Shown here piece after piece: positions 28,040 to 29,801 of a stretch of DNA of 64,000 nucleotides; the stretch's first letter is position 1; each line of letters begins with the position of its first letter. The notes beneath the pieces are model-generated. The model was not told the DNA's origin. It made no database searches and saw only the letters and a program-made list of their open reading frames with translations. This DNA comes from Rickettsia akari str. Hartford (lineage in GTDB: Bacteria > Pseudomonadota > Alphaproteobacteria > Rickettsiales > Rickettsiaceae). Location of the stretch: contig NC_009881.1 in the NCBI RefSeq assembly GCF_000018205.1, positions 310,001 through 374,000 on the forward strand, read 5' to 3'. The translations under genes and the position numbers were made by a program.

Positions 28040-29002
28040 ATGCAATATCAAACACATTGGATAGAACATTCTGTAGTCAAGATATTAAGTACTACCGGTA
28101 AAAACCATATAGCGTTAGTAGCTGGCGGTATGTCTGCTGAGCGTGAAGTATCATTAGTATCAAGCGAAGGGGTTCAGCAAGCCTTAATTGCATTAGGATA
28201 TAAAGTTACCTTTATTGATATGGGAGCGGATATTGCTGTTAAATTACAAGAAATAAAACCTGATATTGTTTTTAACTGTTTACACGGTACATATGGTGAA
28301 GATGGTTGCTTGCCTGGATTACTTAATATAATGAGGATTCCTTATACTCATAGCGGCGTGTTATCTTCAGCTTTAGCATTTAATAAAATACATTCTAGCA
28401 GTTGGTTTTTCGCGAATAGTATTAATACGGCAGAAAGTATTGTTGTAAGTAAAAGCTATAATATAAACACTGATCCTATGAAACGACCATATGTAATCAA
28501 ACCTCTTACGCAAGGATCAAGTATTGGTGTTGAAGTTATATTTGAAGAAGATGATTTTAACTTTGCCGATTATGATTTTCCTTACGGTGATCAGGTAGTA
28601 ATAGAGCGATATATAAAAGGACGCGAATTTCAAGTAGCGGTATTAAACAGTAAAGCTTTAGGAGCTTTAGAGATTAAATTAATAAAAAATCGTTTCTATG
28701 ATTATGAAACTAAATATACCGAAGGATTTGCTGAACATCTGTGTCCTGCTCCGCTACATGCTAATTTATATGAAAAATTACTTATAGAATCAGAAAAAAT
28801 TTATAAAACAATGAATTGTAAAGGTCCTGCTAGAGCAGAGTTTATTTTAGAAGAGCAGACAAACAAATTATATGCTTTGGAGATAAATACTCACCCAGGT
28901 ATGACTCCTTTATCAATAGTGCCGGAAATTGCAGCTTATGCAGGGATAAATTTTACTAACTTAATTGCAGAAATTATAAAGACGGCAAGCTTTGAATCAT
29001 GA
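28040..29002 (+). CDS. ddlB: D-alanine-D-alanine ligase
   Basis: ATP-grasp enzyme that makes the D-Ala-D-Ala dipeptide. The 320 residues contain HIALVAGGMSAEREVSLVSS, FNCLHGTYGEDGCLPGLLNI, the ATP-grasp lysine region RPYVIKPLTQGSSIGVEVIF, and ALEINTHPGMTPLSIVPEIA with the metal-binding residues. The stop codon overlaps the ftsQ start as ATGA, so translation is coupled. The VanX-type dipeptidase remnant at 14.8 kb would have acted on its product. Confidence 0.96.
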   Translation: MQYQTHWIEHSVVKILSTTGKNHIALVAGGMSAEREVSLVSSEGVQQALIALGYKVTFIDMGADIAVKLQEIKPDIVFNCLHGTYGEDGCLPGLLNIMRIPYTHSGVLSSALAFNKIHSSSWFFANSINTAESIVVSKSYNINTDPMKRPYVIKPLTQGSSIGVEVIFEEDDFNFADYDFPYGDQVVIERYIKGREFQVAVLNSKALGALEIKLIKNRFYDYETKYTEGFAEHLCPAPLHANLYEKLLIESEKIYKTMNCKGPARAEFILEEQTNKLYALEINTHPGMTPLSIVPEIAAYAGINFTNLIAEIIKTASFES

Positions 29003-29801
29003 GAAAAAAAACGAGCTCCAATAAAAAAAACAAAAAAAAAAAACTAATAATATCTCATTACGCCGAAAATTAGGACTAATTTACAAAAAAGCAATATTAG
29101 GGCTTAAGATTGCTTTAATTATTTTTGTATGTCTATTTGTTTTTACAAAATATTTTGCTGGCATAAAAACCTACTTAACAACAAATATATATCAAACAAC
29201 AACGAAACTTGGGTTTAAACTTGAGAATGTTATCATCGAAGGACAGCAAAATGTCGATGAGCCTACAATATTAAAGGTTTTAAATGCGAATAATGGTAGT
29301 CCTATTTTCGCTCTTAAATTAGATGAAATTAGAAATCATTTAAAGAAAAATAAATGGATCAAGGAAGTATATGTCAGTAGAAGATTACCAAATACGGTAT
29401 ATATAAAATTATTTGAAAGGGAACCTATTGCTATTTGGCAAATTAATAATCAGCTTTTCTTAGTCGATGAAGAAGGTTACGAAATTAGTAAAAATATTCA
29501 ACCTTTTCCTCATTTATTACATGTTGTAGGGGAAGGAGCGAATATCTATGCAGGTAAATTAGTACTAGAGCTGCAGAAATATCCGGCATTAATGAATAAA
29601 GCTTTAGTGGCTATAAGGGTTGGAGATAGAAGGTGGGATTTAAATCTTAAAGGTAATATAAGTATTAAGTTACCTGAAAAAGAGTTTGAAGAAGCATTAA
29701 AGTATGTCGATGCACTAAATAAAGCCAACAAGCTATTTAACCAAAATTATAAGGCTTTGGATTTAAGGGATAAGCACAAGTATTATATTGAGAAGTATTG
29801 A
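28999..29801 (+). CDS. ftsQ: Cell division protein FtsQ, frame broken in a poly-A run
   Basis: Bitopic divisome protein. ATG at 28999 (overlapping the ddlB stop) begins MRKKTSSNKKNKKKK, then a stop arrives at 29071. Moving one base into another frame after the run of 12 A at 29032-29043 gives an unbroken text to 29801: basic start (SLRRKLGLIYKK), transmembrane helix (IALIIFVCLFVFTKYFA), POTRA domain (FKLENVIIEGQQNVDEPTIL) and RRWDLNLKGNISIKLPEKEF, as in FtsQ. No other start exists in the long frame before the membrane helix. One extra A restores the gene (about 267 residues). Either slippage rescue, a sequencing error, or early decay. Confidence 0.88.

What the first reader, a model, noticed from the sequence alone, without database searches (positions are those of the whole stretch)
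28999..29801. ftsQ is broken exactly at a run of 12 A: candidate transcriptional slippage rescue
The only credible ftsQ start (ATG overlapping the ddlB stop) leads into K-rich codons made of runs of 8 and 12 A, then into a stop. The remaining roughly 250 codons are undamaged in the neighbouring frame and have no start of their own. One additional A restores the whole gene. RNA polymerase slippage at poly-A tracts is known to rescue such genes in AT-rich endosymbionts. FtsQ is a core divisome protein, so pure loss seems unlikely. A sequencing error in the homopolymer is the plain alternative.
Basis: partly seen in the sequence, partly recalled or inferred. Interest (0 to 1): 0.75.

Follow-up and report, generated by a model that had tools for sequence, protein, structure and literature searches.

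The report
Cell-division gene broken at A-tract
In this Rickettsia genome the cell-division gene ftsQ changes reading frame at a run of 12 A's although the rest of the gene looks protected by selection, so most likely either the protein is still made through slippage at the run or the run was misread, and only new reads can tell.

Summary
The ftsQ start at 28999 (overlapping the ddlB stop) runs 24 codons into TAG at 29071. The FtsQ body (POTRA_1 plus FtsQ_DivIB_C, to 29801) is open in another frame, with no ATG/GTG/TTG before 29592. The frames part at A12, 29032-29043, the longest A or T run in this 1.23-Mb genome. In 22 of 22 other genomes of the genus start and body are in frame. The body is not decaying: since the split from R. 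australis it shows 2 nonsynonymous and 9 synonymous changes and no stop. There is no second copy, and 40 of 40 sampled genomes of the family (own included) carry the domain. Best reading (0.45): the break is real and FtsQ is still made, at reduced level, because polymerase and/or ribosome slip on A12. Nearly as likely (0.37): the run length was misread; a published comparison counts 39 split genes in R. akari Hartford, the likely source. No RNA, read or peptide data were available. The mechanism is known from Blochmannia and Buchnera, so this would be a new member of a known kind, in a core division gene of Rickettsia.

The parts
28999..29073 (+). ftsQ start (ATG overlapping the ddlB stop) and upstream frame: 24 codons, Lys-rich, then TAG
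   Evidence: ATGA start present in 22 of 22 other genus genomes
29004..29011 (+). A8 run; also A8 in 17 of 22 relatives
29023..29030 (+). A8 run, one C before the A12 run
29032..29043 (+). A12 run where the frames part; longest A/T run in the genome
29025..29801 (+). Open frame holding the FtsQ body: rest of the cytoplasmic tail, hydrophobic stretch at about 29094-29165 (read by eye), POTRA_1, FtsQ_DivIB_C; no ATG/GTG/TTG before 29592
29592..29594 (+). First ATG/GTG/TTG in the body frame, beyond the hydrophobic stretch and POTRA domain
28040..29002 (+). ddlB (D-Ala-D-Ala ligase), upstream neighbour whose stop overlaps the ftsQ start
29950..31185 (+). ftsA, downstream neighbour, open and without indels against R. 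australis

Best explanation
The frame break is in the DNA, and FtsQ is still made at reduced level, because the A12 run is slippery. RNA polymerase yields mRNAs whose A-run length varies, and/or ribosomes slide on the consecutive AAA codons, so a minority of translation enters the body frame. The run sits in the Lys-rich cytoplasmic tail ahead of the membrane segment, where a varying number of lysines should matter little. If every long-A state leaks into every frame, selection on the exact run length is weak, so the tract can drift in length while the body stays constrained. Shown: tract, frame break, open body with few amino-acid changes, single copy, in-frame relatives. Inferred: that the DNA reading is right, that slippage happens in this organism, and that the output suffices.
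For: Body: 2 N and 9 S changes on this branch against a neutral N share of 0.71-0.80, P from 2e-5 to 4e-4 by mutation model; branch dN/dS 0.05-0.09 with four outgroups; no stop in 243 codons. If dead, at most about 19-28% of the branch could have been neutral (rough bound). FtsQ_DivIB_C is in 157 of 170 genomes of the order and in 40 of 40 of the family in that sample, own included. One copy only. FtsW-type, DivIC, FtsZ and transpeptidase genes are present. A12 exceeds the 9-nt length at which many bacteria avoid A/T runs (PMC1088944, passages) and the 11-A minimum for ribosome sliding in an E. coli cell-free system (PMC4363877, passages). Rescue of this kind, with 12-50% corrected transcripts in frameshifted endosymbiont genes, is reviewed in PMC5009743 (passages). 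In the sister R. australis the stretch differs in length but keeps frame, and the tail length varies by one codon among relatives (3 of 22 shorter).
Against: No RNA, read or peptide evidence. One genome only; the break is not shared with the sister species, so nothing shows that it has persisted. A genome-wide survey of transcription indels in E. coli and Buchnera detected no case where an error restored a reading frame (PMC5574713, passages). In the atpB study's E. coli reporter, efficiency depended strongly on the kind of length change, from about 5% upward (PMC8254509, passages). No RNA structure that would stimulate frameshifting stands out downstream (z -0.27). On the R. australis branch, where the gene is in frame, the count was 6 N to 3 S and dN/dS 0.33-0.75, so these short-branch ratios are noisy. 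The constrained body fits a misread run equally well.
Confidence: 0.45

Rival explanations
1. Sequencing, cloning or assembly error at the longest A run of the genome; the real gene is in frame and ordinary.
For: The frames part on the longest A/T run of the assembly. The body shows few amino-acid changes and no decay, and 22 of 22 relatives are in frame at the start. A published comparison counts 39 split genes in R. akari Hartford and reports split tRNA-synthetase genes among core genes, nearly half of those splits being from R. bellii OSU 85-389 (PMC2635572, passages). That the two assemblies share a sequencing group is recalled, not checked.
Against: The next longest run, A11 in mnmG, and the A10 runs in tatC and a VirB4-like gene are in open frames. 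Of 31 R. australis ORFs of at least 200 aa aligned to the window, none has indels that change the frame in sum (in-frame stops not checked, ftsQ not in the list). The stretch also differs in length in the sister species, so length change at this site happens in nature, if that assembly is right.
Confidence: 0.37
2. True but recent loss, or a culture variant of a hypermutable tract: the sequenced stock carried an out-of-frame allele, perhaps mixed with in-frame cells, and the allele is poor or dead.
For: Long A/T runs are likely hypermutable by replication slippage (PMC1088944 discussion passage). The counts allow loss within roughly the last 19-28% of the branch.
Against: FtsQ_DivIB_C is present in 40 of 40 family genomes sampled, partner genes are present and there is no second copy, so a fully dead allele should not take over a stock (inference). 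But 13 of 170 order genomes gave no match, so loss is not impossible further away.
Confidence: 0.12
3. Translation starts inside the body frame at a near-cognate codon, for example AUU at 29079, five bases beyond the upstream frame's TAG, by termination-reinitiation, giving an FtsQ with almost no cytoplasmic tail.
For: ATC at 29052 and ATT at 29079 precede the hydrophobic stretch; the upstream frame ends at 29073.
Against: No Shine-Dalgarno-like motif in 28961-29060, and only a badly spaced AGGA before 29079. All 22 relatives have the ATGA start in frame. AUU starts are weak (recalled).
Confidence: 0.06

Closest known systems
Poly(A)-tract frameshifted genes rescued by transcriptional slippage in Buchnera and Blochmannia (Tamas 2008, Wernegreen 2010; seen only as cited in PMC3017870 and PMC5009743)
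   Same: AT-rich reduced genome, frame break at a long A run, the rest of the frame open, single-copy gene of a core process
   Different: Here one genome, not shared by the sister species, and no cDNA. Long A/T runs are rare in this genome (9 tracts of 10 or more), against 114-153 coding poly-A tracts of 9 or more in three Blochmannia (PMC3017870, passages)
Ribosome sliding on consecutive AAA codons (PMC4363877)
   Same: Uninterrupted run above 11 A read as Lys codons in the upstream frame
   Different: Shown in an E. coli cell-free system and in E. coli, not in Rickettsia
Oenothera/tobacco plastid atpB oligoA frameshift corrected mostly by the ribosome (PMC8254509)
   Same: Indel in an oligoA tract in the 5' part of a gene, partly compensated
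   Different: There a downstream stem-loop is predicted; here none stands out, and expression is unmeasured
FtsQ/DivIB of the divisome
   Same: POTRA_1 and FtsQ_DivIB_C domains, ddlB-ftsQ-ftsA order
   Different: Start and body in different frames

Membership tests
FtsQ/DivIB | FtsQ-type POTRA and FtsQ_DivIB_C domains in order | tested here: met
   Both over the Pfam cut-offs in the body frame
FtsQ/DivIB | Single open frame with N-terminal tail and membrane anchor | tested here: not met
   Tail start and body lie in different frames; in 22 of 22 relatives they are in one frame. The sequence is an FtsQ gene; whether it makes an intact FtsQ is open
Slippage-rescued poly(A) gene | Frame break at an uninterrupted A/T run of about 9 or more | tested here: met
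   A12 at 29032-29043
Slippage-rescued poly(A) gene | Rest of the gene undamaged and under purifying selection | tested here: met
   2 N and 9 S on the branch, no stop in 243 codons
Slippage-rescued poly(A) gene | Break persists across populations or species (supporting, not required) | tested here: not met
   Sister R. australis and the other relatives in frame, 22 of 22; only one genome of this species was held
Slippage-rescued poly(A) gene | cDNA heterogeneous in run length; full-length protein made | not testable with these tools
   No RNA, read or peptide data
Programmed ribosomal frameshift | Downstream stimulatory structure | tested here: not met
   100 nt after the run: MFE -12.9, z -0.27, 72 of 200 shuffles fold as well
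Programmed ribosomal frameshift | Shift site and frame arrangement conserved among orthologues | tested here: not met
   22 of 22 relatives need no shift at this tract
Pseudogene | Relaxed selection, extra lesions | tested here: not met
   No further lesion in the body; branch dN/dS 0.05-0.09. Very recent inactivation not excluded

The most novel reading that the evidence does not exclude
The ftsQ tail of this Rickettsia lineage is a drifting poly-A rheostat: run length in the DNA and slippage at the RNA and ribosome levels together set how much of a divisome protein is made, so that division capacity of an obligate intracellular bacterium depends on a hypermutable tract that selection cannot fix in one state.
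Probability: 0.08. Interest if true: 0.7.

Novelty: new member of a known kind. Interest (0 to 1): 0.4.

Why it matters
If real, it would bring slippage rescue to a core division gene in Rickettsia, where long A runs are far rarer than in the insect endosymbionts where rescue is described, and show that an obligate intracellular bacterium can live with a leaky divisome component. My searches for Rickettsia with 'transcriptional slippage' (11 papers listed), for slippage/frameshift/homopolymer terms (20 of 54 listed), for Rickettsia akari with ftsQ (3 listed), for ftsQ with 'transcriptional slippage' (1 listed) and for phase-variation terms (10 listed) showed no paper whose title or start of abstract reports such a case; most of these papers I did not open. 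If it is a misread run, the lesson is annotation: a core gene would be wrongly filed as broken.

Tried and rejected
Pseudogene by general decay: rejected, since the body shows few amino-acid changes and no second lesion. Widespread homopolymer errors in the assembly: not seen in the window. Of 61 R. australis ORFs of at least 80 aa, 52 had a match; 8 of the 52 carry non-triplet indels. Seven of these 8 are shorter than 200 aa (one of their indels lies at an A7/A8 run, window 15090); the eighth, 621 aa, has two indels that add up to a triplet. In-frame stops were not checked there. A second broken gene at an A10 run (G000:C1:1222860) looked like a parallel, but the frame that follows it is 39 aa without a Pfam domain and the stretch behind it has only short ORFs, so it says nothing. 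A downstream stimulatory fold: none stands out. A paralogue supplying FtsQ: none. A named record of the same species: none among 11 loci returned, and the tool says own records may be left out. The homologous-protein search gave 33 clusters, the 16 best 266-269 aa long, and no separate entry named for this species.

Results against my reading: no transcript evidence; PMC5574713 saw no frame-restoring errors; the break is not shared by the sister species; on the sister's branch, with an in-frame gene, the N:S count was 6:3; R. akari is listed with 39 split genes (PMC2635572); efficiency of frame correction in the atpB reporter varied widely (PMC8254509).

Rows dropped: L023 (G018; start in frame, body disturbed further down, with a piece matched on the other strand) was left out. 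The dN/dS listing used 13 of the 22 remaining rows. The branch count used 10 of 23 rows. The DNA search used 5 of 22 relatives. One search read 9 minus-strand loci unturned; one search is the corrected version. One search printed no tract contexts, because it loaded only one file; one search repeats it.

Full report
What is there. The window is G000:C1:310001-374000 of a single-contig genome of 1,231,060 bp. ATG at 28999 overlaps the ddlB stop. The frame reads 24 codons, Lys-rich, and stops at TAG 29071-29073. The FtsQ body, with POTRA_1 and FtsQ_DivIB_C over the Pfam cut-offs, is open from 29025 to 29801 in another frame and has no ATG, GTG or TTG before 29592. The frames overlap across A8-C-A12, with A12 at 29032-29043.

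Relatives. The body was found in 23 of 23 genomes of the genus, own included. In the 22 others the same ATGA start is in frame with the body; in one of them (G018) the body is disturbed further down, with a piece matched on the other strand. In the relatives the stretch is broken up by other bases, and its longest uninterrupted run is 8 to 12 A. The sister R. australis also lacks an inner interruption that most near relatives have, but keeps frame, so the stretch was probably already changing in the shared lineage (read). Across the 23 genomes only 7 distinct tracts of 12 or more A or T occur, in 7 genomes, and two of them lie in this ftsQ tail: here, and in G006, which is in frame.

How unusual is the run. 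Collapsing overlapping hits, the genome has 9 tracts of 10 or more A/T; one is 11 (in mnmG) and one is 12 (here). A first-order Markov model of the window, extrapolated to the genome, expects about 65, 24 and 9 tracts of at least 10, 11 and 12. Long runs are thus depleted, as reported for many bacteria (PMC1088944, passages). The A11 in mnmG and the A10 runs in tatC and a VirB4-like gene are in open frames, the last one seen only to the end of its locus.

Is the gene alive. On the branch since R. australis the body took 2 nonsynonymous and 9 synonymous changes, against 22-33 nonsynonymous and 1-3 stops expected for 9 synonymous changes under neutrality. P is 2e-5 to 4e-4 depending on the mutation model. 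Branch dN/dS is 0.05-0.09 with four outgroups; on the same branch it is 0.15-0.19 for ftsA and 0.52-0.66 for ddlB. On the R. australis branch, where ftsQ is in frame, it is 0.33-0.75 (6 N, 3 S), so single short branches are noisy. The 95% bound on 2 changes allows at most 19-28% of the branch to have been neutral. This rough bound takes the 9 synonymous changes as exact and says nothing about the most recent past. FtsQ_DivIB_C is found in 157 of 170 order genomes and in 40 of 40 family genomes in that sample, own included. There is no second copy, and FtsW-type, DivIC, FtsZ and transpeptidase genes are present. A review states that R. [quoted passage not shown]

Mechanism. Two known processes act on such a run. 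RNA polymerase slips on A/T runs, with insertion frequency rising with length (PMC5574713, passages), and 12-50% corrected transcripts are reported for frameshifted genes of two insect endosymbionts (PMC5009743, passages). Ribosomes slide on consecutive AAA codons, with a minimum of 11 A in an E. coli cell-free system (PMC4363877, passages). In a plastid atpB case the correction was assigned mostly to the ribosome, with widely varying efficiency (PMC8254509, passages). A12 passes both lengths. No stimulatory fold stands out downstream, so a programmed frameshift of the classical kind is not supported. Against rescue, the survey in PMC5574713 detected no frame-restoring error. The site lies in the cytoplasmic tail before the hydrophobic stretch, where relatives vary by a codon (3 of 22 shorter), so extra or missing lysines should be tolerated (inference).

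Misread run. The published comparison of ten rickettsial genomes counts 39 split genes in R. akari Hartford (PMC2635572, passages), so breaks are common in that assembly, whether real or not. In the window, 52 of 61 R. australis ORFs of at least 80 aa had a match; 8 carried non-triplet indels, and of the 31 of at least 200 aa none was out of frame in sum (in-frame stops not checked). ftsQ itself fell across two fetched pieces and was not in this list. So homopolymer errors are not widespread here, but the one break in a core gene sits on the longest run. Sequence alone cannot separate the two readings. A 2026 study of 165 Rickettsia genomes lists one R. akari genome (PMC13400510, passages), so no second isolate was at hand.

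Verdict. Kind: new member of a known kind if real. I did not construct or state a mended gene, because the genus includes listed germs.

Noticed in passing
window 32082-32562 (-): Counterpart of a 156-aa R. australis ORF carries a 10-base tandem duplication near 32237 and reads 110 aa here; a frame-changing indel outside a homopolymer.
   Followed up: no
window 31543-31973 (-): Counterpart of a 146-aa R. australis ORF lacks 10 bases near 31660.
   Followed up: no
window 28040-29002: ddlB shows a higher branch dN/dS (0.52-0.66) than ftsQ or ftsA on the same branch; few changes, not tested further.
   Followed up: no
window 29804-29945: ftsQ-ftsA spacer holds a palindromic-looking repeat; a 12-base piece of it matches at 27955 and 55702 with one mismatch.
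   Followed up: partly
G000:C1:1119811-1120472: Two transpeptidase-domain pieces, one with an internal TGA, next to an open 792-aa frame: may be a broken PBP copy.
   Followed up: no
L049 (G006), 1501-1512: A second Rickettsia has an A12 in the same ftsQ tail, at a different place and in frame: the only gene with two of the 7 runs of 12 or more seen among 23 genomes, as far as their contexts show.
   Followed up: partly
L051 (G015), 1501-1520: A20 run in another genome of the genus, no long frame through it.
   Followed up: no
L036, 1481-2400: GGAGG, then ATG followed at once by A10, at the head of a stretch with only short ORFs; relatives match it at 85-94% DNA identity in pieces.
   Followed up: partly
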